In this document: in pieces, positions 12,390 to 26,850 of the stretch | Layout of the letters: each line of letters begins with the position of its first letter | Numbering within the stretch: the stretch's first letter is position 1 | Source of the DNA: Streptomyces sp. NBC_01244 | GTDB lineage: Bacteria; Actinomycetota; Actinomycetes; Streptomycetales; Streptomycetaceae | Direction of reading: 5' to 3' | Assembly (NCBI RefSeq): GCF_035987325.1 | Contig: NZ_CP108488.1 | Location: 3,224,001-3,288,000, forward strand | DNA: 64,000 bases | Notes under the pieces: generated by a model | Database searches by the model: none | Seen by the model: only the letters and a program-made list of their open reading frames with translations | Told to the model about the DNA's origin: nothing | Made by a program: the position numbers and the translations under genes

Positions 12390-12431
12390 GGCCGGCCGTC
12401 GTCACCGCAGCCTGCCCTGACACCCGCCGGG

Positions 12432-13015: not shown

Positions 13016-13030
13016 GCGAACGTTGCCTGA
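13016..13030. repeat. 15-bp direct repeat flanking the GNAT gene (first copy)
   Basis: GCGAACGTTGCCTGA at 13016-13030 recurs in the same orientation at 13579-13593, bracketing the GNAT gene. It may be an IS end or a target duplication left by a lost element. Confidence 0.5.
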
Positions 13031-13033
13031 ACC

Positions 13034-13504: not shown

Positions 13505-13600
13505 TGGATCAGCGTCCCACACCGCCGATGCTGGATGGCATCGCCCCCACGAAACGGTCGCGACACCCCACCAACAGGGCGAACGTTGCCTGATGCGGCA

Positions 13601-13850
13601 CTAGATGATCGATTTCAAGGGATGTCGGCGACTGCGTACTGAGGTCCCGCTGGTTCGAGGTGGTCGGGCTGGTCCGTAGATGGCGCTGTCGGCCTTGGCG
13701 ATCAATGCCCAGTACCGGTCGCCGTAGGACCAGTGCCACCACTGGGTGGGGTAGTTGATGAAGCCGGCGCCGACCATGGCTCGGGCCAAGAGGTCGCGAT
13801 TGCGGCGTGCTCGGTCTGATAGTCCTGAGGCGTCCAGCGGACAGTACTTC
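13601..13850 (-). pseudogene. C-terminal fragment of a VanX-type D-Ala-D-Ala dipeptidase
   Basis: The last 75-80 codons match the end of VanX/DdpX zinc dipeptidases: LSDRARRNRDLLARAM, then GFINYPTQWWHWSYGDRYW containing the zinc-ligand His of the family motif E-W-W-H. The catalytic Glu of that motif is Gln here. The N-terminal two thirds are absent, replaced by transposase sequence from about 13850. VanX hydrolyses D-Ala-D-Ala in glycopeptide resistance. This piece is certainly non-functional. Confidence 0.75.
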
Positions 13851-13852
13851 CG

Positions 13853-14404
13853 TCTCCGGTTTGCCGAACTCCGAGCCGGCGACGCCTTGGACCTGTCCCG
13901 CGCCTCCGTCGACGGCTCCCACCTGCGGGTCCTGAAGGGCGGAGACGCCACCGGGCCCTCGTCAGTGGACCGGGGCAAGACGGGCAGCAAGTACCACGTC
14001 ATTGTCGACGTCCACGGCATGCCCCTGACCGCCACCGTGACCGGTGGCAACCGCAACGACGTCACCCAACGCCTGCCCCTGATACACGCCGTACCGCCCA
14101 TCCGCGGCAAGCGCGGACGACTCCGTCAGCGCCCCGACGTCCTCTACGCCGACCGCGGCTACGACCACAACGTCTACCGCGGCCAGGTCCGTGAGCTGGG
14201 TATCCGCCCGCTCATGGCCCGGCGCGGCACCGGACACGGAAGCGGCCTGGGCAAGAACCGCTGGGTCGCGAAGCGGCCTTCGCACTTCTGCGCTGGTTCC
14301 GCCGACTGCGTATCCGCTGGGAAATCCGCGCCGACATCCACCAGGCATTCGTCACCCTCGGCTGCGCGATCACCTGCTGGCGGCGCCTCAAAAAGCAGTG
14401 CTGA
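13853..14404 (+). pseudogene. IS5-family transposase remnant
   Basis: The frame reads ELRAGDALDLSRASVDGSHLR, SSVDRGKTGSKYHVIVD, VTGGNRNDVTQ and VLYADRGYDH, the DDE catalytic region of an IS5-type transposase. Near 14265 it shifts frame to EAAFALLRWFRRLRIRWEIR and ends at 14404. The 5' portion of the element is missing where it meets the VanX fragment. It is a different IS5 subgroup from the copy at 11.7-12.4 kb. Confidence 0.85.
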
Positions 14405-14413
14405 TCCGAGCCC

Positions 14414-15391
14414 TCAGCCCGAACCGGCGGCCAGTGCCTCGCCGAGCGGGGTGCGCCGGTAGAGCACCGACCGTCCGGACCGGGCGCGGACGAGCAGCCC
14501 CGCGCCTCGCAGGATGGCGAGGTGGTCTCCCACCGCGCCGGGTGCCATGGCGAGGCTTCGGGCGAGGTGGCTGGTACTGGCCGGGGCGTCCAGCGCCAAC
14601 AGCAGCCGGGCCCGAGCCCGGCCGACCAGAGCGGTCAGCGCGTCCGGTTGGGGGACGGTCTCCGGTTCGCCCCACAGGGCGGCGGTGCCGCGGGCTGGAT
14701 AGACCAAGGTCCTGGGCCAGGGGTCTTCCAGGTGGGCGGCGATATGCCCGACGAAGACCGAAGGGATCAGCAGGAGCCCGTCGCCGGCGAGGCGGACTGT
14801 TCCGCCTCGGAAGAAGCCGATCTCGATACCGCCGGCGCGCCAGGCGACGCAGGGGTGCAGGCTCTCGATGGTCGCGGCCCATCCGTGTTCGCCGATCACA
14901 CCCACCTGGTGCACGACATCGCGCTCACAGATCGCGCGCAGTTGCGGCCAGTCCGCGGCGAGCAGCTCGTGCCACGCCTGGTCCATCGCCTCGGCGATCC
15001 TGGAGACGGCGTCCGCCGAGTCCAGCACTGCGCGTACGCGGGGATCACGGGCGGACGGGCCGGTCGCGGTGGCGGCGAACTCGTGGCGAGCCCCTTCCAG
15101 CGGTGTGGCCCGGATCGCGGCCAGGTCGTCAGCCCAGGTCTGGTTCAGGCCGCGCGGGGGCGGGGCGACGAAGTTCGGTCCGCCTTGCGGGGTCTGCAGC
15201 GCGAGGGCGGCGTTCAGTTCGGTCTCGCGGCGAAGCCGTTCAAAGGCCGGCATGAGCCGGGCGGCCCAGGCTCGCGGCAGCGGCTGGCCTTGGCCGGCGA
15301 GCGAGCGCAGCAGCAGGCAGAGGTCCAGTGCGGGCGACAGTGCGAAGCGGCTGCGCAGCAGGTCCTCGACGGAGACTTCGAAGCGCAGCAC
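14414..15391 (-). CDS. ArsR-type transcriptional regulator with large N-terminal domain
   Basis: The 325-residue protein has a winged helix-turn-helix at the C-terminus (about residues 250-320: HLARSLAMAPGAVGDHLAILRGAGLL). An N-terminal ligand-like domain of about 230 residues resembles the DUF5937 type common in actinobacteria. It is divergent from an MFS transporter gene with 89 bases between starts, the standard layout of a repressor controlling its efflux pump. The ligand is unknown. Confidence 0.85.
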   Translation of the reverse strand: MLRFEVSVEDLLRSRFALSPALDLCLLLRSLAGQGQPLPRAWAARLMPAFERLRRETELNAALALQTPQGGPNFVAPPPRGLNQTWADDLAAIRATPLEGARHEFAATATGPSARDPRVRAVLDSADAVSRIAEAMDQAWHELLAADWPQLRAICERDVVHQVGVIGEHGWAATIESLHPCVAWRAGGIEIGFFRGGTVRLAGDGLLLIPSVFVGHIAAHLEDPWPRTLVYPARGTAALWGEPETVPQPDALTALVGRARARLLLALDAPASTSHLARSLAMAPGAVGDHLAILRGAGLLVRARSGRSVLYRRTPLGEALAAGSG

Positions 15392-15480
15392 CCTGCGAGG
15401 CTACCCCGGGACGTCTGTTCTGATTCGTCCAGCGACGAATCATTGGTGAGTGGCGTGGGCGCACGGCGAGGCTGGGCGCC

Positions 15481-16797
15481 ATGACCCCGACCGCCGGACC
15501 CGCGCAGGTCACCCACCGTGCCACCTACCGGCAGGTGCTGGCCGAGCCGCGATTCCGGCTGCTCTTCTCGACCCGCACCGTCGCGATCACCGCGGACTCA
15601 CTGCGGATCACCACGTTCTCGGTTCTGGTCTTCGCGGCCACCGGCTCCGCACTGTTGAGCGCACTGGCCTTCGGCATCGGCTTTCTCCCGCAGTTGTTCG
15701 GCTCGCTGCTGCTGGGCTCACTGGCCGACCGACTGCCGCCCCGCGCGCTCATCGCCGGCGGCTACGCGTTGGAAGGCGCCGCCGCCCTGCTGCTCGCCCT
15801 GGTGCGGATGCCGATCGCGGCAAGCCTCGGTGTCGTGGCGCTGGTCGCCCTCGCCACACCGGTGTTCGGCGGCGCGTCGAGTCGGCTGGTCGGGCAGTGG
15901 CTGGAGGGCGATGCCTATGTACTGGGCCGTTCACTGAACAACGTCGCTGCCTCCGGCGCGCAATTGTTCGGTCTGGCGCTGGGAGGTGCGGTCGTCGCGG
16001 TACTCGGCCCGCACCGGGCGCTCGCGGTGAGCGCCGCCCTCTACCTCGGCTGCGCGCTCGCTGTCCGCCTCCGGCTGCCCCGGCTGCAGCCGGGAGACTT
16101 CGGCGGCACACCCGGCAGCGCCCGGGGCGAGGGCGGGGCCGTCCGGGCAAGCCTGCACGGTGCCGGCCTGCTGCTGCGCGGACACACGGTGCGACGACTG
16201 ATGCTGGCCCAGTGGCTACCGCCCGCGTTCGTAGCGGGCGCGGAAGGCCTGATCGTCGCCTACGCGGGAGGACACCACTTCGCGCCCGGCTGGTACGCGG
16301 TGCTGATGGGCTGTCTGCCGGTCGGCATGCTGGTCGGTGACCTGCTGGTGGGGCGACTGCTACGGCCACCCACCCGGGAGCGACTGGTAGTCCCGTTGAT
16401 TGCGCTGATGGGACTGCCGCTGGTCGGCTTCGCCGCCGAGCCCGGAGCGGGCGCCTCGTCCGGTCTGCTGCTGCTCTGCGGCTTCGGATTCGCATACGGT
16501 CTCGGCCTGCAACGGCCGTTCCTGGACGCCCTGCCGCAGGACGGCCAGGGTCGGGCCTTCGGTCTGCTCGGCTCCGGCGGCATGACGCTGCAGGGCGTCG
16601 GGCCGGCCTGCTTCGGCTCGGTGGCCGCCGGCATCGGAGCAGGCGGCGCCATCGCCCTGGCGGGCGGCGCGGCGGTGCTCACCGTCGGCTGGATTCTCAC
16701 CTGGCACCCGCCCACCTCCCCGGTCCCCGTCCCGAACTACGCAACGGGATCAGAGAACGGCACCGAACAGCGTGCGTGTAGTTCTCCTGCGCGGTAA
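15481..16797 (+). CDS. MFS transporter
   Basis: A 438-residue protein with twelve predicted hydrophobic segments and the loop 2-3 motif LLGSLADRLPPRALIAGG, typical of MFS efflux proteins of the MFS_3/enterobactin-exporter-like type. The divergent ArsR-type gene presumably controls it. The last 20 residues (ATGSENGTEQRACSSPAR) are hydrophilic and unlike the family, so the original C-terminus may have been altered. The exported substrate is not predictable. Confidence 0.85.
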   Translation: MTPTAGPAQVTHRATYRQVLAEPRFRLLFSTRTVAITADSLRITTFSVLVFAATGSALLSALAFGIGFLPQLFGSLLLGSLADRLPPRALIAGGYALEGAAALLLALVRMPIAASLGVVALVALATPVFGGASSRLVGQWLEGDAYVLGRSLNNVAASGAQLFGLALGGAVVAVLGPHRALAVSAALYLGCALAVRLRLPRLQPGDFGGTPGSARGEGGAVRASLHGAGLLLRGHTVRRLMLAQWLPPAFVAGAEGLIVAYAGGHHFAPGWYAVLMGCLPVGMLVGDLLVGRLLRPPTRERLVVPLIALMGLPLVGFAAEPGAGASSGLLLLCGFGFAYGLGLQRPFLDALPQDGQGRAFGLLGSGGMTLQGVGPACFGSVAAGIGAGGAIALAGGAAVLTVGWILTWHPPTSPVPVPNYATGSENGTEQRACSSPAR

Positions 16798-16980
16798 CCG
16801 TCGCAGGTCGGGTCGGCCGCGAGCCGTCACGCCCCCCACCCCCACCCCCGCGCCTCCCTGACAGACAGTCATTCCCGGTAGCTCATTGCATAAGGAGTCC
16901 CAAGCTTCGGCTCTGCCGGCCGTTGCGGACCACGTACGGGATCTTGAGACCACGAGCAGCCCATGGCAGGCTCATGCCGC

Positions 16981-17565
16981 ATGATCGATGAATTCGCGAA
17001 GGACAACCTGCACGGGCGACTGCGGCGGGACCGCGAGGCGCTGCTCTGGAAACTCGACGGCTTGTCCGAATACGACGCCCGCCGGCCTTTCACGGCGACC
17101 GGGACCAACCTCCTCGGCCTGGTCAAGCACGTGGCCACCGTCGAGGCCAGGTACTTCGGCGAGGTCTTCGACCGCCCTTCCCCGGAACCGCTGTCCCGGT
17201 GGCAGGACTCCGACGGCAGCGATCAGTGGGCGACCGAGGACGAGACCCGCGATCAGATCATCGGGTTCTACCGGCGCACGTGGGAACACTCGGACGCGAC
17301 GATCAACATGCTTCCCCTCGATGCCCCCGGCCACGTGCCGTGGTGGCCGGAGCCTTATGCCGACACGAACCTGTTCGCCGTCATGGTCCATGTCCTCGGC
17401 GAGTCCAACCGGCATGCCGGGCACGCCGACATCCTGCGCGAGGGCCTCGACGGCCGGACCGGGATGCGCCCCGAACACGAGAAGCAGATCGACGAGGAAG
17501 CCCGTGCGGCCTACCGCGCGAAGATCGAGCAGGCCGCCAGGTCGGCCGTACCCATCAAGGCTTAG
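16981..17565 (+). CDS. DinB-family (DUF664-type) protein
   Basis: A 194-residue four-helix-bundle protein of the DinB/YfiT-like superfamily. The metal-binding histidines are apparent: H50 in LVKHVATVE, and H137/H145/H148 in MVHVLGESNRHAGHADIL. Family members are metal-dependent thiol transferases or damage-inducible proteins, and the biochemical role is usually unknown. ATG 16981 is preferred to ATG 16963 because the family normally starts MIDEF. Confidence 0.85.
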   Translation: MIDEFAKDNLHGRLRRDREALLWKLDGLSEYDARRPFTATGTNLLGLVKHVATVEARYFGEVFDRPSPEPLSRWQDSDGSDQWATEDETRDQIIGFYRRTWEHSDATINMLPLDAPGHVPWWPEPYADTNLFAVMVHVLGESNRHAGHADILREGLDGRTGMRPEHEKQIDEEARAAYRAKIEQAARSAVPIKA

Positions 17566-17589
17566 AGGTTGTCTCACGTGACGTGATAT

Positions 17590-17830
17590 TCGTGCGGCAT
17601 GATGCCGGTCGTGGGTGCTGTACACGACAGCCTCGCCCTCAAGCCGCTCATCCGCGGCGTACCCGCCGTCCGGTCCCGCCGGGGGACCACGGCGGCGCCG
17701 ACCGTCAAACTCCGCGCGGACAAGGCGCACTTCTCCGCCGAACGCCTGGCCTGGCCTGGCCTGGCCTGGCTGTGCGATCGCGGGCTCGTCGCGCGCATCG
17801 CGCAGCCCGGCACATCTCAACTTGACCAGG
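17590..17830 (+). pseudogene. IS5-type transposase fragment
   Basis: The translated segment VGAVHDSLALKPLIRGVPAV, then KLRADKAHFSAERLAW and RGLVARIAQPG, matches the central catalytic part of an IS5-type transposase. No start, N-terminus or C-terminus remains. Inside it the pentamer CCTGG is repeated five times (17746-17770), probably a slippage expansion. The stretch up to the carbonic anhydrase start at 17917 otherwise shows nothing. Confidence 0.75.
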
Positions 17831-17916
17831 ACCTTTGTCCAAGACTTCCTCAAGGCCGGACCAAGCCTGCAGCGGCAGCCCGCGCGCCGACCGGGATGCG
17901 CATACTTTGTGCCTGC

Positions 17917-18651
17917 ATGACAGATGATGCTGAACGGGATGCGCTGCCGGGGCGGCGCCAACTTGTCCGGGCGGCGCTGACCGGGGCGGTGGCGGTGGTC
18001 GCCGGGCTGGTGTCCGATACCGCCGCGACCTCGACCGTCACCCGGCCCGAGCGGAAGGGCCAGCGGCCCAGGAATCCCGAGGCCGCGCTACGGGAACTGG
18101 CGGCGGGCAATGTCCGCTGGCGTACGTTCCACGAGCGGAATCCAGACCGGACGCGGGCCGTACGGCAAACGCTGGTCACCGGCCAGCATCCCTTCGCCGT
18201 GGTCCTGGGCTGCGTCGATTCCCGAGTCCCGCCGGAGCTGGTCTTCGACCAGGGCCTGGGTGACCTGCTGACCGTGCGCTCGGCAGGCTCGATCCTCGAT
18301 GAGGCGGTCCTCGCCAGCATCACCTACGGAGTACTGGAGTTGGGAATCCCGCTCGTCGTCGTTCTCGGGCACCAGTCGTGCGGTGCCGTGACCGCCGCCG
18401 TCCACGCAGCCCAGGGCGGGGAGCTGTTGCCCGGCCATATGCAGTACCTGGTCGACCAGATCCGTCCGGCCATCGACCGCACGCTTACAGGCGCGGAGCG
18501 CGTGGATGCCGCCATCACGGCGAACGTGCGGCTGGTGCGCTCCCGCCTGGTCGCCGAGCCCGACCTCACGCCCAGGATCACGGCGGGCAGGCTGGCCGTG
18601 ATCGGAGCCCGGTACGAACTGACCAGCCAGCGGGTTCACCGGATCCACTGA
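17917..18651 (+). CDS. exported beta-carbonic anhydrase
   Basis: A 244-residue protein with an Arg-Arg N-region and hydrophobic core (RRQLVRAALTGAVAVVAG, residues 13-30), consistent with Tat or Sec export. The beta-class zinc site is intact: Cys99, Asp101 and Arg103 in CVDSRVPPE, with His152 and Cys155 in GHQSCGA. It interconverts CO2 and bicarbonate. ATG 17917 fits the domain start; longer in-frame starts run into IS sequence. It lies upstream of a module that includes a SulP transporter, the usual partner in bicarbonate or sulfate transport. Confidence 0.92.
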   Translation: MTDDAERDALPGRRQLVRAALTGAVAVVAGLVSDTAATSTVTRPERKGQRPRNPEAALRELAAGNVRWRTFHERNPDRTRAVRQTLVTGQHPFAVVLGCVDSRVPPELVFDQGLGDLLTVRSAGSILDEAVLASITYGVLELGIPLVVVLGHQSCGAVTAAVHAAQGGELLPGHMQYLVDQIRPAIDRTLTGAERVDAAITANVRLVRSRLVAEPDLTPRITAGRLAVIGARYELTSQRVHRIH

Positions 18652-18696
18652 CCCCCGCCCACAGTGAAGCGTCCGGCGGAACCACACCCGCTAGAC

Positions 18697-18712
18697 TTGC
18701 AGAGTTATGCAA
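18697..18712. promoter_or_regulatory. TTGCA-N6-TGCAA operator, site 1
   Basis: The palindrome TTGCA-GAGTTA-TGCAA lies 37 bases before the first gene of a four-gene plus-strand operon. The same palindrome with the same 6-base spacing occurs upstream of two ArsR genes (20308-20323 and 23818-23833). It is the probable binding site of the ArsR paralogues. Confidence 0.75.
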
Positions 18713-18749
18713 TTTACTAGTTCTGGATTCCATGGACGGGGGTTGCGGT

Positions 18750-18923
18750 GTGGCCGGGTTCGAGGAAGCGGCGCTGGAACGGGTCCGGGTGGCGCGGGCT
18801 CGTCTCCGGGCTGCGCGGGAGACTGACGATGCCTTCGAGGAAGCGCAGGCCGCGGATGAGCTGGAGGACGCGCTGCGCGTGGCCCACGATCACGGCGTGG
18901 CCACCGGCGGGGACAGCCAGTGA
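18750..18923 (+). CDS. small helical protein, first gene of an ArsR-controlled operon
   Basis: A 57-residue, highly charged Ala/Glu/Arg-rich protein that should form one long helix or coiled coil (FEEAALERVRVARARLRAAR). GTG 18750 is chosen because GGGGG lies seven bases upstream; an upstream ATG (18732) would add six residues and lacks a ribosome site. It starts 37 bases after the TTGCA-N6-TGCAA site and 37 bases before the kinase-like gene. The function is unknown; a regulator-binding peptide is possible. Confidence 0.55.
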   Translation: MAGFEEAALERVRVARARLRAARETDDAFEEAQAADELEDALRVAHDHGVATGGDSQ

Positions 18924-18960
18924 ATCGGATGGCGTCACGGTCTCGTCCGAGGCCGCGGTA

Positions 18961-19410
18961 ATGGCCCGGCACCCCAGCGGGCAGCCGACGCTGCCGCAGA
19001 CGCGCAGGCACACGTGGACGGTGCCGCTGGTACCGGGCTCGGTACGGGCCGCCCGCGAGCGTACGGAACGATCCCTGGTTCTGTTCGGCCTGCAGGGCGC
19101 CTCCTCCCTGTTCGGGGCCGTACTGCTCGTGGTCAGCGAGCTCGTCACCAATGCGGTCCGCCACGCCCCGCAGTCCCCGGAGGCCGAGGTCACCCTCCAC
19201 GTGACGGACCACATGCTCGTGGCCTCCGTCGCAGATCTGGACCCGCGTCCCATCACGCTGGCCGACGCCGACCGGGCCTCAGGGCAGGGGCTACGCACGG
19301 TGGCAGACCTGGCACGCACCTTCGGTGGCGACGTCCGTATCGAGCCCGCTTCTGGCGGGCGCGGCAAGGCGGTCATCGTCCGCTTCATCCTGACCGAGGG
19401 AACCCCATGA
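18961..19410 (+). CDS. SpoIIAB/RsbW-type ATP-binding protein
   Basis: The 149-residue protein is a HATPase_c fold of the anti-sigma-factor kinase kind. The N-box is ELVTNAVRHAP and the G2-like motif SGQGLRTVADLA. Such proteins phosphorylate STAS antagonists or bind sigma factors. A STAS gene and a second HATPase gene lie at 20.4-21.2 kb on the other strand, so cross-talk is likely. Its stop overlaps the next start by four bases (ATGA). Confidence 0.88.
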   Translation: MARHPSGQPTLPQTRRHTWTVPLVPGSVRAARERTERSLVLFGLQGASSLFGAVLLVVSELVTNAVRHAPQSPEAEVTLHVTDHMLVASVADLDPRPITLADADRASGQGLRTVADLARTFGGDVRIEPASGGRGKAVIVRFILTEGTP

Positions 19411-19613
19411 ACAGTATTGAGCCCCGGGCTGTCCAGCTCTACGAGATCACCTACCTCGGCACCGGCGCCGTCGTCGATAGCCGCACGGTCGAGGCAAGCG
19501 AGGTGGCAGCCGCCATCGAGCATGCCGGCGAGCACGGCATGAAGATCCTTGTCCGCCCGCACATCCCAGCCCAGGATGAAACCGACACCCGGATAGGAGG
19601 GCAGCCGTCATGA
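19407..19613 (+). CDS. small conserved-looking protein, 68 residues
   Basis: Translationally coupled to the kinase-like gene (ATGA overlap) and to the following membrane peptide gene (ATGA overlap). The sequence VQLYEITYLGTGAVVDSRTV suggests a small beta-alpha fold. It has no membrane segment and no cysteines. The family is not recognised; the coupling argues that it is a genuine gene. Confidence 0.6.
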   Translation: MNSIEPRAVQLYEITYLGTGAVVDSRTVEASEVAAAIEHAGEHGMKILVRPHIPAQDETDTRIGGQPS

Positions 19614-19768
19614 CGGACGACAAGCCCGTGGAGAGCGAGGCGGCCAAACAGGAACGGTGGCTGGCCAAGGGCGTCGCACTGCGTGCCTTCTTCTACATCT
19701 TCGGCACGCACCTGTTCGCCGGGTTCGTGTGGCTGCTCTTCTACCTCGGCCAGCACGCCCAGAAGTGA
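19610..19768 (+). CDS. 52-residue single-pass membrane protein (DUF6126-like)
   Basis: The start overlaps the previous stop (ATGA). The sequence has a charged N-terminus, then LRAFFYIFGTHLFAGFVWLL, one strongly hydrophobic helix, and a short polar tail. It resembles small Streptomyces membrane proteins I remember as DUF6126. It closes the four-gene operon and is followed by a strong inverted repeat. A membrane anchor or transporter accessory role is possible. Confidence 0.6.
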   Translation: MTDDKPVESEAAKQERWLAKGVALRAFFYIFGTHLFAGFVWLLFYLGQHAQK

Positions 19769-19771
19769 GGA

Positions 19772-19827
19772 GCGGCCGTCTTCCGGTGTCAGAAGCGCGT
19801 TGACCCGCACTAACGGAAGACGGCCGC
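19772..19827. terminator. hairpin between convergent operons
   Basis: Perfect 14-bp arms (GCGGCCGTCTTCCG at 19772-19785 and its complement at 19814-19827) flank a 28-base loop, four bases after the stop of the small membrane-protein gene and before the convergent ArsR gene. The position fits a bidirectional terminator. Confidence 0.65.
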
Positions 19828-19873
19828 CGCATGTGGGGCGCGGCCCTGACGGGGCCTGCGCCGGGTGTGCCGC

Positions 19874-20209
19874 CTAGATGTGGCTGGTGGCACGCAGGTC
19901 GGCCAGGAGTTCGGCCTGGCCCTCCAGGACGCCGGAGAGGATGCCGCGGGCGACCCGCAGCAGTTCGGCGATCTGGGGGTGGGTGAGCTTGTAGTAGACG
20001 TTGGAGCCTTCGCGGCGGGTGACCACCAGGTTGGCCTTGCGCAGGACGGCCAGCTGCTGGGAGAGGCTCGCCGCCTCCACCCCGACCTCCGGCAGCATCT
20101 CGGCGACCGCGTGCTCACGTACGGCCAGGAGTTCCAGGACGCGGATGCGGACCGGGTGCCCCAGCGTTTTGAAGAACTCCGCCTTGAGCTGGTACAGCGG
20201 TGTGCTCAC
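19874..20209 (-). CDS. ArsR-family repressor (paralogue 2)
   Basis: This 111-residue winged-helix protein (GTG 20209, AGGGG upstream) reads LYQLKAEFFKTLGHPVRIRV, then VEAASLSQQLAVLRKANLV for the recognition helix. It has no cysteines, so it is not a thiol-based metal sensor of the classical ArsR kind. It is clearly paralogous to the ArsR at 23379-23720. A TTGCA-N6-TGCAA site lies 98 bases before the start, suggesting autoregulation. The inducer is unknown. Confidence 0.92.
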   Translation of the reverse strand: MSTPLYQLKAEFFKTLGHPVRIRVLELLAVREHAVAEMLPEVGVEAASLSQQLAVLRKANLVVTRREGSNVYYKLTHPQIAELLRVARGILSGVLEGQAELLADLRATSHI

Positions 20210-20307
20210 CTGGGTACCCCTGCCGTGACTGCCCATCTCATCCACCCGGAACCGTTCCTTCAGCGGGGCGTTCGCTCGCCCCTCTTCACACCTTGTGACC
20301 TCCACAA

Positions 20308-20323
20308 TTGCAGATCCCTGCAA
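20308..20323. promoter_or_regulatory. TTGCA-N6-TGCAA operator, site 2
   Basis: TTGCA-GATCCC-TGCAA, 98 bases before the second ArsR gene. It has the same arms and spacing as the other two sites, only the spacer bases differ. Confidence 0.75.
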
Positions 20324-20386
20324 CTCCTGGGACCCGGTGGGCGGCTTTCGTGACGTTCGCCCCTCGCAGAGCGGGTCCTTCGCCGG

Positions 20387-20791
20387 TCAGGCGGGTGCGG
20401 CCGGATGATTCGGGTCCGGCCAGTCATCGGTGCGCCACTGCTTGACCGCGTCCTGGGCCCCGTGGGCGGCCAAGGCCGCGGAGAGGTCGCAGTGGACGGC
20501 GACGGGCGGGCACGTGGCGTCGGGTACGAGAGAGCCGTCCGCAGGTATCGCCGCGAGCTCCAGGCGGCGGCCGTTCTCGGCGAGGTGGCGTGCGGCCTGG
20601 GCGACGGCGATCTGCCCTCCGGCCGACCAGCCCATGAGTCCGGTCAGGTCGAGGATGACCGGTCCGGTGCCCCGGGCGAGAGCCCACCCGATGGCGCCCG
20701 TGAACCGGTCCACGGCTTCCGCGCCGAGGTAGCCCGCCAGGGACAGCACGCCCAGGTCCTCGCGGGTCGTGTACCGCCATTCGATCGTCAT
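20387..20791 (-). CDS. STAS-domain anti-sigma factor antagonist
   Basis: A 134-residue STAS protein: beta strand GPVILDLTGLMGWSAGGQIAVA holds the conserved Asp-Leu and the likely phosphorylation Ser in GWSAGG (usual form D-S-S-G). Such antagonists are phosphorylated by SpoIIAB-like kinases and release sigma factors in the dephosphorylated form. The kinase-like gene lies 16 bases upstream in the same operon. The motif is atypical, so phosphorylation control is probable rather than certain. Confidence 0.82.
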   Translation of the reverse strand: MTIEWRYTTREDLGVLSLAGYLGAEAVDRFTGAIGWALARGTGPVILDLTGLMGWSAGGQIAVAQAARHLAENGRRLELAAIPADGSLVPDATCPPVAVHCDLSAALAAHGAQDAVKQWRTDDWPDPNHPAAPA

Positions 20792-20807
20792 CGTCAGTTC
20801 CTCGGCT

Positions 20808-21233
20808 TCACAGGGGGAGGGTGATCCAGATGGCCTTGCCGCGCCCGTCCGCGTCCGGCCTTACAAGGGCCGTGCCGCCCAGCTCCATCGTCATTGCGAC
20901 CACCATGGCCAGACCGCTGCCCGGGGCGGTGGCGAGCGCCCCGAACAGGGCGGGCTGGTAGGGGTGGCGGTCGTGGACGGCGAACGCGAACGCCCCCGGC
21001 CCGTGCGCGTAGGTGACCGTGATCGTCGGAGAGGTCAGGGCGGCATGGCGGACGGCGTTGGTGACCAGCTCGGCCAGGATCAGCAGGGCCGGGCCGACGC
21101 TGGGATGGCAAAGGCCCACGCCGCACTCCACCAGGACCCGTTCGGTGGTCTCGCGGGCAATGCGGACGGCCGGGCCGGTGGCCGGCACGTCCAGCACGTG
21201 CCGGTAGGGCATCGTCTCGACCCGGACACTCAC
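20808..21233 (-). CDS. SpoIIAB/RsbW-type ATP-binding protein
   Basis: A 141-residue HATPase_c protein with N-box LAELVTNAVRHAA and G-motif GSGLAMVVA. It starts at GTG 21233, overlapping the stop of the flavin-fold gene by four bases, and precedes the STAS gene. It would be the anti-sigma kinase partner of the STAS protein. Together with the plus-strand HATPase at 18961 the island has two such kinases and one visible antagonist. Confidence 0.9.
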   Translation of the reverse strand: MSVRVETMPYRHVLDVPATGPAVRIARETTERVLVECGVGLCHPSVGPALLILAELVTNAVRHAALTSPTITVTYAHGPGAFAFAVHDRHPYQPALFGALATAPGSGLAMVVAMTMELGGTALVRPDADGRGKAIWITLPL

Positions 21234-21652
21234 CGGCCCGCCCCCGAAACCGTGCGGGCCAGGCGGAACCCGGACACCTGCTGCGGGTGCAGACGCAGCA
21301 GTGTGTCGTGCGGGCCATGGGCCCAGCCGGGCAGGGTGCGCCGGTAGTGGGCGGCCTCGTCCGCATCGGCGATGACGTCCGCCGGCCCGTGAGCGGTCAC
21401 CGTCCAGCCGGTTCCGGCCGGGGTGCGGATCTCATCGACCTGGTAGGTCAGCAGTGCACGCCCGGGGATGGTGGCCGCCTGGACGGGCGAGCGGACGACG
21501 ATGCGCCCGTACTCCATCACGTGCACGGCCGGGCGGACCACGGCCAGCTCCCGCTGGACGTAGACGAGTCGGCCTTGGCTGGAGCCTTCGAGGAGCCACA
21601 GGGCCTCGGTGCCGGAGACCTCGATCATGCGGCGGTCGGCGGGGACGGTCAT
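21230..21652 (-). CDS. pyridoxamine 5'-phosphate oxidase-like flavin-fold protein
   Basis: This 140-residue split-barrel protein (SSQGRLVYVQRELAVVRPAV, then YGRIVVRSPVQAATIPGR) matches the PNPOx-like family that binds FMN or F420. It overlaps both the SulP stop and the kinase start by four bases. Members in Streptomyces often accompany redox or stress genes. Whether it is an enzyme or a sensor is not visible from the sequence. Confidence 0.85.
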   Translation of the reverse strand: MTVPADRRMIEVSGTEALWLLEGSSQGRLVYVQRELAVVRPAVHVMEYGRIVVRSPVQAATIPGRALLTYQVDEIRTPAGTGWTVTAHGPADVIADADEAAHYRRTLPGWAHGPHDTLLRLHPQQVSGFRLARTVSGAGR

Positions 21653-23382
21653 CGTGCGGCCTTCCGGATGCGGTGCGGTCGGTGATGCGTACGGGGCAGC
21701 AGTCCCGCCTGCTCCAGGTGTTTGCGGGCCCCGGCGATGGCTTCCGGGGTGGTGGCGTACTCACGTCCCTCCAAGCGCAGCAGGTCGAGTGCGCCGACGG
21801 CGTCCAGGGCCTGGCGCTGGCCGGGCCGGATGCCGGAGGTCATGACGGCGATGCCGCGCCGGTTGAGCTTCTCCACCGCGTCCTTCAGCACCAGGGCGCC
21901 TGTGGCATCCAACGTCGTGATGCGGGACATCCGCAGGATCACCACCTTCACGTCGGCGACCTCGGAGAGTTCCAGGAGGAAGCGGTGGGCGCCGGCGAAG
22001 AAGAGGGGGCCGTCGATGCGGTAGGCGACGATGTGCTCCGCCAGCAGGGCGTGCTCCTCGTCGCTGTGCTCGCCGGGCAGATCCGGGCGGAAGTCCACCT
22101 GCTCCATCCGTGCCTGGCTCGCCACCGCCTTCAGCGCGAGGGCACCTGCGACGACCAGCCCGATGATCACCGCGTAGACGAGGTCGAGGACCAGGGTCGC
22201 GGCGGCGGTCAGGACCAGTACGACGGCGTCCGAGCGCGTCGCCTTCGCCATCGCCCGCAGCGAGCCGACCTCCACCATGCGGATCGCCGTCGCCAGGAGC
22301 ACGCCGGCGAGCGCGGCCAGCGGGATCTTCGAGACGAGCGGGGCCGCAGCGAACACGATCACCGCGAGCACTGCGGCGTGGGTGAGTGCGGCCAGGCGGG
22401 AGGAGGCGCCGGTACGGACGTTGACCGCGGTCCGCGCGATCGCGGCCGTCGCGGGGACGCCGCCGAACAGCGGGGCCGCCAGGTTGGCAATGCCCTGACC
22501 GAAGAGTTCCTTGTCCGGGTCGTGCTGCTGCCCCACCGTCATCCCGTCCGCGACCGTCGCCGACAGCAGGGACTCCAACGCGGCGAGCGCCGCGACAGCC
22601 ACAGCGGGGGCGAGCAGCGAGCCGAGGGCGGACAGGTCCAGGAAAGCGAGGGAAGGGGCGGGCAGGCCGGAGGGCAGGTCACCGATCGGGGCCGCCGCGT
22701 CCAGGGGGAAGACCTGCGCGAGCACGGTCGCGGCGATCACCGCGACGATCGAGAACGGGATCGTCGGCTTCCAGCGGGCCCCTGCCAGCATCACCGCCGC
22801 GACACCGGCCGAGAGACCGATCGCGGTCCAGTTCGGGAACGCCACGAACTCCACGAGCGCCCGCCAGGCCACGAGCAGGACCTTCTCCCCCTCCGGCTTG
22901 GCCACACCGAGCGCATTGGGTATCTGCTGAAGGCCGATCACACACGCGATACCAAGGGTGAACCCCTCCACCACCGGCGCCGGCACATACCTCATGTACT
23001 GCCCGGCCCGCAGCAGCGCGAGGCCAATCAGCAGGACACCGGCCATCAGTCCGACCGTCAGCACGCCACCGGGCCCGTACTGGGCGACGATCGGCACCAG
23101 CACCACGGTCATCGCACCGGTCGGCCCCGACACCTGGAGGTTGGAGCCGCCGAACAGGGCGGCAAGCGCGCCCGCGACCACGGCCGTGGCGAGCCCCGCC
23201 TCGGCACCCAGCCCGGAAGAGACGCCAAAGCCGAGCGCGAGCGGCAAAGCGACGATCGCCACGGTCAGCCCGGCCAGGAGATCCCGGCGGGGACTACGAC
23301 CCATGACCGCGAAGTCAGCCCTTTCCGGCAGCACCGAACGGACCCGCCCGAGCACGGAAGCCAGGAAGGCGTTCACGGTCAC
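21649..23382 (-). CDS. SulP-family inorganic anion transporter with STAS domain
   Basis: The 577-residue protein has the SulP transmembrane core of about 10-14 segments (RRDLLAGLTVAIVALPLALG at the start; GIANLAAPLFGGVPATAAIA in the middle). It ends in a cytoplasmic STAS domain (about residues 440-560, VKVVILRMSRITTLDATGA). SulP proteins move sulfate, bicarbonate or other anions. With a beta-carbonic anhydrase in the same island, bicarbonate uptake is a reasonable inference, sulfate an alternative. GTG 23382 overlaps the ArsR stop by four bases. Confidence 0.93.
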   Translation of the reverse strand: MTVNAFLASVLGRVRSVLPERADFAVMGRSPRRDLLAGLTVAIVALPLALGFGVSSGLGAEAGLATAVVAGALAALFGGSNLQVSGPTGAMTVVLVPIVAQYGPGGVLTVGLMAGVLLIGLALLRAGQYMRYVPAPVVEGFTLGIACVIGLQQIPNALGVAKPEGEKVLLVAWRALVEFVAFPNWTAIGLSAGVAAVMLAGARWKPTIPFSIVAVIAATVLAQVFPLDAAAPIGDLPSGLPAPSLAFLDLSALGSLLAPAVAVAALAALESLLSATVADGMTVGQQHDPDKELFGQGIANLAAPLFGGVPATAAIARTAVNVRTGASSRLAALTHAAVLAVIVFAAAPLVSKIPLAALAGVLLATAIRMVEVGSLRAMAKATRSDAVVLVLTAAATLVLDLVYAVIIGLVVAGALALKAVASQARMEQVDFRPDLPGEHSDEEHALLAEHIVAYRIDGPLFFAGAHRFLLELSEVADVKVVILRMSRITTLDATGALVLKDAVEKLNRRGIAVMTSGIRPGQRQALDAVGALDLLRLEGREYATTPEAIAGARKHLEQAGLLPRTHHRPHRIRKAAR

Positions 23383-23720
23383 GAGGCCGGGACCTCGGAC
23401 TCCCGCAGCTCCTCCAACAGCTCGCGCTGCCCAGCCAGCACCTCGGTCAAGATCCGCCGAGCCGCCCGCATCAGCTGCGCGACGTCCCCGCCCGCCAGCT
23501 CGTAGACCACGGTCGAGCCGTCACGCACGGAGGTCACGATCCCCGACCTGCGCAGCACCGCGAGCTGCTGCGAGAGCGCAGACGGTTCGACCTCGATCGC
23601 GGCCAGCAGATCCCTTACCGGCATCGGCCCGTCCTGCAACAGCTCCAGAACCCGTATCCGCACCGGGTGCCCGAGCATCCGAAAGAACTCGGCCTTGGCC
23701 TGATACAGCGGAACCGGCAC
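23379..23720 (-). CDS. ArsR-family repressor (paralogue 1), first gene of the SulP operon
   Basis: A 113-residue winged-helix protein starting at GTG 23720 (GAAGGG upstream). The recognition region is VEPSALSQQLAVLRRSGIVT; there are no cysteines. It is about 55-60% identical by eye to the ArsR at 19874-20209. It heads an operon of five genes (ArsR, SulP, flavin-fold, kinase, STAS) with four-base overlaps at the first three junctions. The operator site lies 97 bases upstream, the same distance as for the paralogue. Confidence 0.92.
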   Translation of the reverse strand: MPVPLYQAKAEFFRMLGHPVRIRVLELLQDGPMPVRDLLAAIEVEPSALSQQLAVLRRSGIVTSVRDGSTVVYELAGGDVAQLMRAARRILTEVLAGQRELLEELRESEVPAS

Positions 23721-23817
23721 GGTCTCGCACCCTTCTCATCACCCCGCACGCCGGGGCAGACGGCTGGTGCTGTGCCCGTGGCTACCTACGGACACAGCAC
23801 CCACAGCATCTATGAAA

Positions 23818-23833
23818 TTGCAAACTTATGCAA
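23818..23833. promoter_or_regulatory. TTGCA-N6-TGCAA operator, site 3
   Basis: TTGCA-AACTTA-TGCAA, flanked by A/T to give an 18-base palindrome (A at 23817, T at 23834). It lies 97 bases before the ArsR gene that heads the SulP operon. Confidence 0.78.
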
Positions 23834-24078
23834 TTCGCCGATTCTGCGGTCCGCAGACCGACCGCGGGCTGTACCGTCTGGGCAGGGCCTCGCCGCATCC
23901 CCCGTCGGCGAGGCCCTCTGCAAGCCTCACGAGCAATCCCCGGATGATGCCAGGCCGGCTGTGCCCCCAGGGCACGAGTGGGGCTGAGCAGGACGGACAC
24001 GCCAGCCGGCCGCCCCTCAGCCACCGTTCCATCGAGACCGGATCCGTGTCCACGATCAGAACGTGGGCGCCCCTCGGT

Positions 24079-25200
24079 TCAGCGGCGAGACATGTAAAGG
24101 TCGAGAGCCTTGTGGAGCAGTCTGTTGAGCGGAAAGTCCCACTCGCCGAGGTATTCGGCGGCTTGGCCGCCGGTGCCGACCTTGAACCGGAGCAGGCCGA
24201 GCAGGTGGTTGGACTCCTCCAGGGTGTCGGTAATGCCGCGCAGGTCGTAGACGCTCGCGCCCAGTTCGTGGGCGCCGCACATCATCCGCCACTGGATGGC
24301 GTTGTTCGGCTGCACTTCACGCTTGCGGCTGGTGGAGGCACCGTAGGAATACCAGACGTGCTCACCAACGGTCAGCATCGTGGCCGCGGCCAGCACTTCG
24401 CCCTCGTGACGGGCGAGATACAGTCGCATCCGGTCGGCGTCCTCCGCCCGGAGCGCGGTCCACATGCGCTGAAAGTAGGCCAGCGGGCGGGGGATGAACC
24501 GGTCGCGTTCCGCGGTCTCCTTGTAGATCTCGTAGAAGGCGGGCAGGTCCTCGTAGCCGCCTTGGACTACCTCGACCCCGGCCTTCTCGGCCTTCTTGAC
24601 GTTGCGGCGCCACTGCTGATTGAAACCGCGCTGGACCTCGTCCAAGGACCGTCCGGCGAGCGGGACCTGGAACACGTAGCGCGGCTGCCCCGCGCTGAAC
24701 CCGTCCTCACCACCAGTTTCGCCCTGCTGCCATCCCATGCGGCGCAGCCGGTCGGCGACATCGAAGGCCCGGGGCTCGCACGAACTGGCCTCAACATCTC
24801 GCAGCCGGCCTGCCCGCGGGTCCGCAATGGCGTCCTTGACCGTTTCTGCATCCCAGCGTCGGACGATCACGGGCGGACCCATTTTCGCCGAGAACGCGCC
24901 GCGGGTCTTGAGGTGCGCCAGCATCGGCTCGAGCCACCGCTCAAGGTCCGGGGCGTACCAGTCGATGACCGGGCCTTCGGGAAGGTAGGCGAGGTATCGC
25001 TTGAGCTTCGGCAGCGGCCGGAACAGCACGAGCGCCGCCCCGACGATCCGGTCGGTCTCGTCGATCCATCCGAGGCTCTCCGCCCGCCAGTCCGGCTTCA
25101 CATCCCCCCACGAGGGCACCTGCATGTGACTCGCGGAGGGCCGGCTCTTGATGAAGGCCAGATGCTCGTCACGGCTGATCGCTCTCAAGCGGAAGGTCAT
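24079..25200 (-). CDS. FemX/VanK-type peptidoglycan peptide ligase
   Basis: The 373-residue protein is a FemABX non-ribosomal peptidyltransferase with two GNAT-like subdomains and a helical insertion (FNQQWRRNVKKAEKAGVEVV). It reads SASHMQVPSWGDVKPDWRAE near the N-terminus, nearly the sequence I remember for Streptomyces FemX and VanK. These enzymes attach the first glycine to the stem-peptide lysine/diaminopimelate of lipid II from Gly-tRNA. VanK does so on D-Ala-D-Lac precursors; sequence alone cannot separate the two here. A VanX remnant exists at the other end of the island. Confidence 0.87.
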   Translation of the reverse strand: MTFRLRAISRDEHLAFIKSRPSASHMQVPSWGDVKPDWRAESLGWIDETDRIVGAALVLFRPLPKLKRYLAYLPEGPVIDWYAPDLERWLEPMLAHLKTRGAFSAKMGPPVIVRRWDAETVKDAIADPRAGRLRDVEASSCEPRAFDVADRLRRMGWQQGETGGEDGFSAGQPRYVFQVPLAGRSLDEVQRGFNQQWRRNVKKAEKAGVEVVQGGYEDLPAFYEIYKETAERDRFIPRPLAYFQRMWTALRAEDADRMRLYLARHEGEVLAAATMLTVGEHVWYSYGASTSRKREVQPNNAIQWRMMCGAHELGASVYDLRGITDTLEESNHLLGLLRFKVGTGGQAAEYLGEWDFPLNRLLHKALDLYMSRR

Positions 25201-25547
25201 GTGTAGTGCTCCTCTGTTCGACGCGGCAGCCTACTTCGCAGACTTCACGGGCCGACAACGACCGCACCCGGGCGCCGGGAAGCAGCTGCTGGAGGGGTAC
25301 CTCCACAGAGCAGGTCGACGCCATCGCACTCATGTCCTGTGCAGGGTGCGGCCGATCAAGTCGGAGGGATCGAGGCGGGTTTCCGCCTGGCATCTGATGT
25401 GGTCCAGCAAGTAGGCGCCGTAGCGCTCGCCGCCGTGGACGGGCACAGAAACGGCTTCGTCAGCACTCCGGTCCGGCGTGCGTGAGGCGAAAGCAGAAGA
25501 GGACGCCGGGGGCGGAGAAGCCGGAATCGCAGACCCCGCCGGCCGGA
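25201..25547. other. intergenic stretch at the right end of the island
   Basis: No gene is convincing here. One minus-strand frame ending at 25330 reads VHGGERYGAYLLDHIRCQAE and looks somewhat protein-like, but it continues without a start into the repeat and is not assigned. No integrase, excisionase or origin motif is recognised. Confidence 0.4.
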
Positions 25548-25842
25548 GCGGGCCCGCCTCAAGAGGTTCGCCCGATGCCCATGGAGTCGGACGCTCACGA
25601 GGAACAGGAACGGCCGGGGATGTAACCCCCGCCCGGACGACGGCCGTGGGACCCATCACCACGCATCCCACCGACGAATCGAACGAAACCCCAGGTCACA
25701 GACCTCTACGGGCTTGCGGGGGACGGGCATCGCCTCACGGTCGCCGCACCGAAACGGGGATCCCACCGCCGCAAAAACTACGTTTCCGCAGGTCAGAAGG
25801 TTTCTTCTGACCTGCGCGAGTGGGGCGGGTGGGACTCGAACC
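25548..25842. repeat. right direct repeat (attR-like) overlapping the intact tRNA
   Basis: This is the counterpart of 12432-12724. The segment 25776-25842 is identical to 12658-12724 over 67 bases. The flank 25548-25775 is similar but diverged. The repeat enters the complete tRNA gene (25821-25894) from its 3' end and stops within the T-arm. Confidence 0.85.
25788..25815. terminator. hairpin downstream of the CAT-anticodon tRNA
   Basis: A perfect 12-bp stem (GCAGGTCAGAAG at 25788-25799 with its complement at 25804-25815, loop GTTT) begins six bases past the tRNA 3' end. The same hairpin occurs in the left repeat at 12670-12697. Confidence 0.75.
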
Positions 25843-25894
25843 CACGGCCGACGGATTATGAGTCCGCTGCTCTAACCGGCTGAGCTACCGCCCC
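25821..25894 (-). tRNA. tRNA with CAT anticodon (Met or Ile2)
   Basis: The complement folds as a 74-base cloverleaf: acceptor GGGGCGG/CCGCCCC, D-arm GCTCAGCCGGTTAGAGC, anticodon loop CTCATAA, T-loop GTTCGAGTC, discriminator A, with CCA not encoded. CAT is read as elongator Met or, after lysidine modification, as Ile for AUA codons; which one cannot be fixed without comparison. Its 3' end is the attachment site of the island to its left. Confidence 0.95.
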
Positions 25895-26040
25895 TTCACG
25901 GCGTGGCGCGTACATGTGTGCGCGCCGTCTGCCGCAGCATAGCCGCTCATACGATCTCCTGCCTCGGATGCCTCGCATGATCGGCTTCGCCTGCCCAGAG
26001 AGACCGCATCGGGCCGTGCCCGGTTGCGCGAGGCGGGCAG

Positions 26041-26071
26041 AAAAAAAGAAAAAGGACCCACCTGGGGTCCT
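26041..26071 (-). terminator. rho-independent terminator of the tRNA-Asn genes
   Basis: On the minus strand a 7-bp stem (AGGACCC/GGGTCCT, 26053-26071) with a 5-base loop is followed by a T-rich run (26041-26052 read as complement). It lies 12 bases after the downstream tRNA-Asn. Confidence 0.85.
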
Positions 26072-26083
26072 CGTTCCTTCTTG

Positions 26084-26156
26084 CTCCCCCGACTGGACTC
26101 GAACCAGTAACCTGCCGATTAACAGTCGGCTGCTCTGCCAATTGAGCTACAGGGGA
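26084..26156 (-). tRNA. tRNA-Asn (GTT)
   Basis: The complement gives a 73-base cloverleaf with acceptor TCCCCTG pairing CGGGGGA (one G-T pair), D-arm GCTCAATTGGCAGAGC, anticodon loop CTGTTAA and T-loop GGTTCGAGTCC. It is identical to the copy at 26162-26234 and separated from it by only five bases, so both come from one transcript. Confidence 0.96.
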
Positions 26157-26161
26157 CCGCG

Positions 26162-26234
26162 CTCCCCCGACTGGACTCGAACCAGTAACCTGCCGATTAA
26201 CAGTCGGCTGCTCTGCCAATTGAGCTACAGGGGA
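26162..26234 (-). tRNA. tRNA-Asn (GTT), tandem duplicate
   Basis: Identical over all 73 bases to the copy at 26084-26156, with the same GTT anticodon. It is the promoter-proximal member of the pair. Confidence 0.96.
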
Positions 26235-26380
26235 TTGCTGCGTTGCACCGAACAGCCCACCTCTGGCCTTGGCCAGGGGGCGAGCGCCCGTTGCGAGTCA
26301 TAGATTAGCGCAAGCAGGGGGGTGCTCCGCCAATCGGTATCGCCAGCGGGCCGGGCACCACACGACGAAGGGTGGCAGGC

Positions 26381-26689
26381 ATGCGGTACAAGGTCACGTT
26401 CGCGGTCGGGCTGGCCCTCGGGTACGTGCTCGGGACCCGGGCCGGACGCGAGCGGTATGAACAGTTGAAGAAGTCCGCGCGCGAGTTCGCGCAGAACCCC
26501 GCGGTCCGCAACGCCGCGGAGAGCGCTGGTCAGAGCGGCCGGGAGTTCGCCGGCAAGGCCTACGCCGCGGTGAGCGACAAGGTGGGCGACGCGATGCCGG
26601 ACGCCTTGGCCGGACGCGTACGGGGCTTGCGGGCACGGGTCGGTGGCGGTGGCGCGGGCGAGGACGACTGGGGCACCAGCAACACCTGA
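26381..26689 (+). CDS. YtxH-like small membrane-associated protein
   Basis: This 102-residue protein starts MRYKVTFAVGLALGYVLGTR. The short N-terminal hydrophobic segment with a GYVLGTRAGRERYEQL motif is typical of YtxH-domain stress proteins in actinobacteria. The rest is Ala/Gln-rich helix and a Gly-rich tail. It is probably anchored to the membrane with the helix in the cytoplasm. The precise function is unknown. Confidence 0.8.
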   Translation: MRYKVTFAVGLALGYVLGTRAGRERYEQLKKSAREFAQNPAVRNAAESAGQSGREFAGKAYAAVSDKVGDAMPDALAGRVRGLRARVGGGGAGEDDWGTSNT

Positions 26690-26850
26690 CCGGCCCGGTC
26701 CGGAGCGCGGGTCCCGCCGCGCGGGACCCGCTCCGGGGCCCCGTCCGGTCGCGTGCGCGGGGTCCCGCCCGGTCCCACATAAGGGACGGGCCCGGTCCCG
26801 GGCACGCCGGGGCGGTCGAGACCGCCCCCGCGTGCGGCAGAATTCTCCGC

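What the first reader, a model, noticed from the sequence alone, without database searches (positions are those of the whole stretch)
17917..23720. Possible new inorganic-carbon or anion-response system combining SulP, exported carbonic anhydrase and partner switching
One compact region joins an exported beta-carbonic anhydrase, a SulP transporter, two ArsR repressors, a flavin-fold protein, two SpoIIAB-like kinases, a STAS antagonist and three small proteins, many coupled by 4-base overlaps. SulP plus carbonic anhydrase suggests bicarbonate handling (family knowledge). Linking it to anti-sigma kinases suggests that ion status feeds a sigma factor or switch. I know of no described system with this composition.
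Basis: inference. Interest (0 to 1): 0.88.

Follow-up and report, generated by a model that had tools for sequence, protein, structure and literature searches.

The report
Shared-switch anion transporter gene module
A soil bacterium keeps an anion-transporter operon, a pair of signalling proteins and a helper gene set under one DNA switch that two repressors related to a tuberculosis dormancy regulator probably bind; relatives pair such repressors with the transporter or with a membrane ion-pump-like complex, which hints at a shared, still unknown signal such as carbon dioxide or redox state.

Summary
The genes are real. TTGCA-N6-TGCAA occurs 5 times in the 10-Mb genome, 3 of them here: before arsR1-sulP-flavin-kinase-STAS, before arsR2, and before the small-protein/kinase set. 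In 150 Streptomyces genomes, 63 of 68 exact AATTGC-N8-GCAATT sites lie at this module, a SulP-less version of it, or a hydrogenase-4-like operon. A relaxed site lies upstream of SulP in 52 of 52 loci. Both ArsRs are nearest, among solved structures, to M. tuberculosis Rv0081. In 60 other actinomycetes chosen only by ArsR similarity, 23 have SulP nearby and 16 have ArsR directly before a hydrogenase-4-like complex; the large subunits seen lack Ni-Fe cysteine motifs. The carbonic anhydrase is optional (3 of 52 loci) and lies outside the operators. Kinase and STAS genes follow the ArsRs even without SulP. Bicarbonate is the likeliest SulP cargo but unproven; no sigma factor is tied in. Verdict: a real, conserved regulon that I did not find described; the CO2/sigma story is only partly supported.

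The parts
17917..18651 (+). beta-carbonic anhydrase, Tat-like N-terminus; neighbour, probably outside the ArsR regulon
   Evidence: PF00484 E 8.6e-33; nearest solved 1ym3/2a5v; its stop precedes the operator at 18695; near SulP in 3 of 52 loci
18695..18714 (.). operator 1 (ACTTGCAGAGTTATGCAATT), 17 bp before the small-protein ATG
   Evidence: conserved in relatives
18732..18923 (+). small protein smA (start ATG 18732 or in-frame GTG 18750)
   Evidence: relatives before ArsR1 in L183 and L088, F19 relatives before ArsR1-SulP in L191-L196; no Pfam or NCBIfam hit
18958..19410 (+). SpoIIAB-like HATPase 1 (ATG 18961 possible)
   Evidence: PF02518 and PF13581
19407..19613 (+). small protein smB
   Evidence: ORF, 4-base overlaps on both sides; conserved in relatives
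19610..19768 (+). DUF6126 small protein
   Evidence: PF19621 E 2.1e-19
19874..20239 (-). ArsR2, Rv0081-type repressor
   Evidence: NF033788 over cut-off; 6jmi E 1.4e-31, next 7.5e-13
20306..20325 (.). operator 2, upstream of ArsR2
   Evidence: conserved
20387..20791 (-). STAS anti-anti-sigma-like protein; S56 is S or T in 46 of 46
20808..21233 (-). SpoIIAB-like HATPase 2, conserved ELVxNxVRHA box
   Evidence: PF02518/PF13581
21230..21652 (-). PNPOx-fold, Fsq/Rv0080-like flavin-binding candidate
   Evidence: PF12900; model pLDDT 84.6; Foldseek 3fkh E 4.0e-8, 6eci (FAD-binding MSMEG_5243) E 4.7e-8
21649..23382 (-). SulP anion transporter with C-terminal STAS domain
   Evidence: PF00916 E 4.9e-72, PF01740; 6ki1, 5da0
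23379..23720 (-). ArsR1, Rv0081-type repressor
   Evidence: 6jmi E 1.3e-26, next 2.8e-13
23807..23812 (-). TAGATG, -10-like element next to operator 3
   Evidence: position and conservation by eye
23816..23835 (.). operator 3 (AATTGCATAAGTTTGCAATT on the minus strand), upstream of ArsR1-SulP
   Evidence: relaxed site upstream of SulP in 52 of 52 loci

Best explanation
This is one repressor-controlled regulon. Two paralogous ArsR/SmtB repressors of the Rv0081 type, without cysteine, probably bind the palindrome AATTGC-N8-GCAATT at three promoters: arsR1-sulP-flavin protein-kinase-STAS, arsR2, and smA-kinase1-smB-DUF6126. When a signal releases them, the cell makes a SulP anion transporter (bicarbonate the likeliest cargo), a flavin-binding-type protein and a SpoIIAB/SpoIIAA-like kinase/STAS pair acting on an unlinked target. 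Shown by sequence: genes, sites, their conservation, fold matches. Inferred: that these ArsRs bind these sites, direction of control, signal, cargo, flavin binding, kinase target. The carbonic anhydrase is a helper in some species, not a core member.
For: Operator: 3 exact sites in the window, none in 100 shuffles; 5 in the whole genome, reversed control 2. Exact 20-mer: 68 sites in 57 of 150 genus genomes, reversed control in 1 genome; 54 within 4 kb of a module SulP, 8 at SulP-less versions, one of these a lone ArsR2, 1 before the hydrogenase-4-like operon (L166), 5 elsewhere. Genomes with module SulP have an exact site in 45 of 51, others in 12 of 99 (relatedness not corrected). Relaxed site upstream of SulP in 52 of 52 loci. 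ArsR1 and ArsR2 share the SQQLAVLR stretch (recognition-helix assignment recalled), fitting one operator. Near other ArsR1 relatives the palindrome shifts to AATTGAAG/CTTCAATT-like forms. Outside Streptomyces 23 of 60 ArsR loci have SulP, in 18 directly after ArsR. Flavin protein. STAS. Rv0081 is reported to bind an inverted repeat in its own promoter, to repress itself and to lack a defined metal site (PMC6177252 passages).
Against: No binding or expression data. 14 of 52 SulP loci show none of kinase, STAS and flavin genes (2 of the 14 are cut off by a contig end) and ArsR1 is not found beside SulP in 16 of 52, so these parts are dispensable. A relaxed site downstream, at ArsR2, is seen in 25 of 52 only. 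21 of 60 class-wide ArsR loci have neither SulP nor the complex. 6 of 51 genomes with module SulP lack the exact 20-mer. Kinase partners are unknown among 57 sigma-region and 33 SpoIIE-type matches. The SulP does not reach the BicA or DauA cut-offs.
Confidence: 0.68

Rival explanations
1. Dormancy/redox module: the ArsRs report low oxygen or redox stress, as the DosR-linked Rv0081 is thought to do, and SulP moves some anion useful in that state; CO2 is incidental. (This rival shares the regulon of the best explanation and differs on the signal.)
For: Both ArsRs closest to Rv0081; flavin protein matches Fsq among its best, and Rv0080 is described as an Fsq homologue whose M. smegmatis orthologue, when lost, improves hypoxia survival (PMC13284343 passages); DevR/GAF-kinase genes near 7 of 52 SulPs and nitroreductase/PNPOx genes near 8 of 52; in L063 and L070 the operator lies between DevR and SulP.
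Against: Only a minority of loci; no control for how often such genes flank random sites; the OsdR paper's main text has no occurrence of ArsR, SulP, sulfate, Rv0081 or carbonic anhydrase.
Confidence: 0.35
2. One reading: exported carbonic anhydrase plus SulP sense or gather bicarbonate and feed the kinases and a sigma factor.
For: CA beside SulP here; CA close upstream of SulP in the cousin subfamily, 5 of 5 loci fetched; CA in 5 of 16 loci fetched by flavin-protein similarity.
Against: CA near only 3 of 52 module SulPs of the even sample and outside the operators; kinase or STAS persists without SulP; no linked SpoIIE-type phosphatase and no linked sigma factor shown.
Confidence: 0.12
3. Ordinary patchwork: Streptomyces carry many HATPase and STAS genes, and the cluster is a chance mixture kept by descent.
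For: 14 of 52 SulP loci show none of kinase, STAS and flavin genes.
Against: Three rare sites in 5 kb, the same sites before different gene sets, class-wide ArsR-SulP pairing.
Confidence: 0.07

Closest known systems
M. tuberculosis Rv0079-Rv0080 operon and Rv0081-Rv0088 locus (Rv0080 flavin protein, Rv0081 ArsR, predicted formate hydrogenlyase)
   Same: Same ArsR subtype without defined metal site, autoregulation by inverted repeat reported, PNPOx-fold flavin neighbour, hydrogenase-4-like complex after ArsR in relatives of this module
   Different: No SulP, STAS, SpoIIAB-like kinase or carbonic anhydrase mentioned in the passages read; its own operator was not compared here
CA-linked SulP bicarbonate transporters (Felce and Saier, recalled and cited in PMC5489568)
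   Same: SulP with a beta-CA gene nearby in this and some other species; cousin subfamily has CA close upstream
   Different: Not a fusion; CA usually absent; ArsR control, flavin, kinase and STAS genes added
BicA / SLC26Dg / DauA SulP transporters
   Same: Fold family, nearest solved sequences 6ki1 and 5da0
   Different: Below BicA and DauA NCBIfam cut-offs; Glu (64 of 64) where the aligned BicA chain has Asp
SpoIIAB/SpoIIAA and RsbW/RsbV partner switches
   Same: Kinase N-box, STAS fold and conserved S/T56
   Different: Invariant Trp before the Ser; no linked sigma factor or phosphatase shown; ArsR operator upstream
Hydrogenase-4 / formate hydrogenlyase (in relatives)
   Same: HyfB-, HyfF-, NuoB- and NuoC/D-like subunits after ArsR
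   Different: Large subunits seen lack CxxC motifs, so not a normal [NiFe] hydrogenase

Membership tests
ArsR/SmtB repressors | ArsR winged helix | tested here: met
   HTH_5 over cut-off for both; NF033788 over cut-off for both
ArsR/SmtB repressors | cysteine-based (metal or persulfide) sensor site | tested here: not met
   any Cys in 3 of 73 ArsR1 and 1 of 68 ArsR2; BigR cut-off not reached. Histidine/aspartate metal sites were not tested systematically
Rv0081-type ArsR | sequence nearest to Rv0081 | tested here: met
   6jmi best by about 13 (ArsR1) and 19 (ArsR2) orders of magnitude; only solved structures compared
Rv0081-type ArsR | binds inverted repeat in own promoter | tested here: inconclusive
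   palindrome at both arsR promoters, conserved in near relatives; binding not testable here
SulP | Sulfate_transp domain plus STAS | tested here: met
BicA bicarbonate transporter | NCBIfam BicA equivalog cut-off | tested here: not met
   270.5 of 880 bits
BicA bicarbonate transporter | Na-site Asp (ligand role recalled) | tested here: not met
   Glu in 64 of 64 core and 13 of 13 cousin sequences, aligned to Asp of 6ki1
CA-linked SulP | CA fused or adjacent | tested here: inconclusive
   present here; 3 of 52 module loci, 5 of 16 loci fetched by flavin similarity; 5 of 5 cousins
SpoIIAB/SpoIIAA partner switch | kinase ATP-binding N-box | tested here: met
   ELVxNxVRHA conserved in 47 HATPase-2 sequences
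SpoIIAB/SpoIIAA partner switch | phosphorylatable Ser at start of the helix after the strand (position recalled) | tested here: met
   S/T56 46 of 46; strand 45-55, helix from 57
SpoIIAB/SpoIIAA partner switch | target sigma factor and phosphatase encoded at the locus | tested here: not met
   no SpoIIE match within 170 kb, nearest sigma-region match 9.4 kb away; unlinked partners not tested
Fsq-type flavin protein | split-barrel fold close to FAD-binding Fsq | tested here: met
Fsq-type flavin protein | binds FAD | not testable with these tools
   needs purified protein
[NiFe] formate hydrogenlyase (relatives) | Ni-Fe ligating CxxC motifs in large subunit (role recalled) | tested here: not met
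   none in the two subunits translated whole nor in any of the 27 tblastn hits listed, partial ones included

The most novel reading that the evidence does not exclude
Rv0081-type ArsRs form an actinomycete-wide family of repressors that sense inorganic carbon or a linked C1/redox state and switch on a SulP bicarbonate transporter, or a hydrogenase-4-like complex that has lost its Ni-Fe site and may pump ions or handle CO2, or both, with a kinase/STAS switch added in Streptomyces. The tuberculosis dormancy regulator would then be one member of a wider carbon/ion-status family.
Probability: 0.2. Interest if true: 0.85.

Novelty: new variant of a known kind. Interest (0 to 1): 0.6.

Why it matters
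It replaces a loose gene list by a defined regulon with a precise, testable operator, and gives Rv0081-type regulators, whose signal I found nowhere stated, two recurrent partners (SulP and an apparently Ni-Fe-less hydrogenase-4-like complex) in harmless bacteria where the signal can be sought. It also supplies a kinase/STAS pair encoded together with an ion transporter.

Tried and rejected
Rejected: carbonic anhydrase as core member. Rejected: formate hydrogenlyase as the shared metabolic theme, because the large subunits seen lack CxxC motifs. Known regulatory RNA in 14000-27000: only three tRNAs reach a gathering score. A 5'-UTR palindrome after the ArsR1/SulP promoter was folded in 55 sequences: median z -1.4, and RNAalifold gave no consensus on a poor alignment; left as a side note. 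Own genome for the hydrogenase-4-like complex: only two 31% matches to its large subunit. A profile search of the STAS family in solved sequences gave one irrelevant hit; HATPase 2 gave only a weak hit to Rv1364c, E 0.023. Literature: the listings of searches for Streptomyces+SulP+carbonic anhydrase (20 of 154 listed), Rv0081+ArsR+inverted repeat (3 of 3), Streptomyces+ArsR+OsdR (10 of 316), Rv0081+formate hydrogenlyase (12 of 17), SulP+ArsR family+operon+carbonic anhydrase (1 of 1), Rv0081+Streptomyces (10 of 18) and inorganic carbon+ArsR+SulP+Actinobacteria (12 of 303) showed no description of this regulon; (no paper) and 118 added nothing. Most subscription papers are not held.

Errors of mine: the first small protein was scanned out of frame (start 18733), so its identities are not used; corrected. 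One search crashed and was rerun. The shuffles kept only base composition. One search placed the SulP start wrongly in some loci (such as L069, L109); gene counts are therefore taken from the recount (upstream site 52 not 51, ArsR1 36 not 34, HATPase 34 not 32, flavin 30 not 29, downstream site 25 not 26, all five 22 not 21, none of three 14 not 15); the DevR, nitroreductase and Hyf counts are still. Both mix own gene calls with tblastn, so small genes may be missed.
Full report
Observation. The genome has 10.0 Mb and its near relatives are named Streptomyces. On the minus strand ArsR1, SulP, a PNPOx-fold protein, HATPase 2 and STAS form one run, followed by ArsR2; on the plus strand stand carbonic anhydrase, then smA, HATPase 1, smB and DUF6126.

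The hidden link. TTGCA-N6-TGCAA is found three times in the window, at the promoters of smA, ArsR2 and ArsR1 (none in 100 shuffles), and only five times in the whole genome (the reversed control pattern gives 2). Near relatives keep the sites at the same places. Aligning upstream regions by eye gave a 20-bp form, AATTGC-N8-GCAATT, at ArsR1 or SulP often followed by TAGATGCT or TACATGCT, a -10-like element; at ArsR2 of more distant species the site is weaker. The exact 20-mer occurs 68 times in 57 of 150 Streptomyces genomes; the reversed control occurs in one genome. Of the 68, 54 lie within 4 kb of a module SulP, 47 of them within 1 kb; 8 more lie at SulP-less versions of the module, one of these a lone ArsR2; one lies in front of a hydrogenase-4-like operon in a genome without a close SulP (L166); 5 lie elsewhere.

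Gene content. Of 52 module SulP loci in 50 genomes (five cousin loci and the fragments of G050 and G139:C48 left out before counting), the relaxed site TTGC-N8-GCAA lies within 900 bp upstream in 52, ArsR2 downstream in 44, ArsR1 upstream in 36, HATPase in 34, PhnA/YjdM in 31, flavin protein in 30, STAS in 30, a relaxed site downstream in 25, carbonic anhydrase in 3; 22 have ArsR1, flavin, HATPase, STAS and ArsR2 together, 14 show none of flavin, HATPase and STAS, two of these at contig ends. Among the 16 loci fetched by flavin-protein similarity, 5 have a carbonic anhydrase. PhnA is a frequent partner not called in window 12000-27000. Without SulP, the same operator precedes ArsR1-STAS-ArsR2 (L160), ArsR1-HATPase-ArsR2 (L165), STAS-ArsR2 (L162) and others. 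So the kinase/STAS pair belongs to the ArsR regulon rather than to SulP.

Other genera. In one other genus six loci from three genomes read smA-like, ArsR1, SulP, with flavin protein in four and STAS in four, behind a variant palindrome AATTGA-N8-TCAATT, one base off in L193; four of them (L192-L195) have the large subunit of the hydrogenase-4-like complex on the same stretch. This makes smA an old member. ArsR2 relatives (E 1e-22 or better) occur in 140 of 394 actinomycete genomes and 48 of 137 genera. From the 118 non-Streptomyces genomes with a match I took the 60 best, one locus each: 23 have SulP on the stretch (18 with ArsR directly before it on the same strand), 16 have ArsR directly before the hydrogenase-4-like genes, none of the 60 has both, 21 have neither. 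By rough arithmetic a 12-kb stretch would hold a SulP in about 0.6% of cases at the window genome's about five SulP genes per 10 Mb. In seven Streptomyces loci the SulP operon and that complex are neighbours.

What the complex is. Its membrane subunits match hydrogenase 4 B and F, its large subunit matches NuoC/NuoD-like families, but the two large subunits read whole have no CxxC and none of the 27 tblastn hits shows one, partial hits included. A normal formate hydrogenlyase is therefore unlikely, and a formate explanation was dropped.

Function. Best reading: a repressor-controlled anion-transport and signalling regulon. Bicarbonate is favoured because the five cousin SulP loci carry a CA gene within 1.3 kb upstream and because CA-linked SulPs are proposed bicarbonate carriers (passages); this is inference. 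A redox or low-oxygen signal is about as likely as a CO2 signal. No sigma factor is linked: the nearest sigma-region match is at window 33144-33356, and no SpoIIE-type phosphatase lies within 170 kb.

Novelty. Each protein family is known; the operator, its near-exclusive attachment to this module and the class-wide pairing of Rv0081-type ArsR with SulP or the apparently Ni-Fe-less complex were not found in the listings of the searches named under Tried and rejected. I call it a new variant of a known kind.

Noticed in passing
window about 23765-23801 (minus strand): GC-rich palindrome GGTGCTGTGTCCG...CGGGCACAGCACC just after the ArsR1 promoter; stem kept with changed bases in some relatives (L069, L091), possible 5'-UTR hairpin.
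   Followed up: partly
L089, L100, L103, L057 upstream of SulP: ArsR1 looks shrunken to a short leader that keeps its start and end before SulP (seen by eye).
   Followed up: no
L181-L190: ArsR1-like genes, most beside roadblock/LC7 genes; several carry an AATTGAAG...CTTCAATT-like palindrome upstream.
   Followed up: partly
L063 and L070: The operator lies between a DevR-like regulator and SulP, so it may serve both.
   Followed up: no
L164, L173, L178: A similar palindrome precedes another family (F64, about 150 aa), also in the window genome near C1:8741068.
   Followed up: no
window 33144-33356 (minus): Best-scoring sigma-70 region 2 match of the genome, 9.4 kb from the module; a principal-type sigma factor by inference.
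   Followed up: no
window 26084-26156 and 26162-26234 (minus): Two equal-scoring tRNA genes in tandem, a third at 25821-25894.
   Followed up: no
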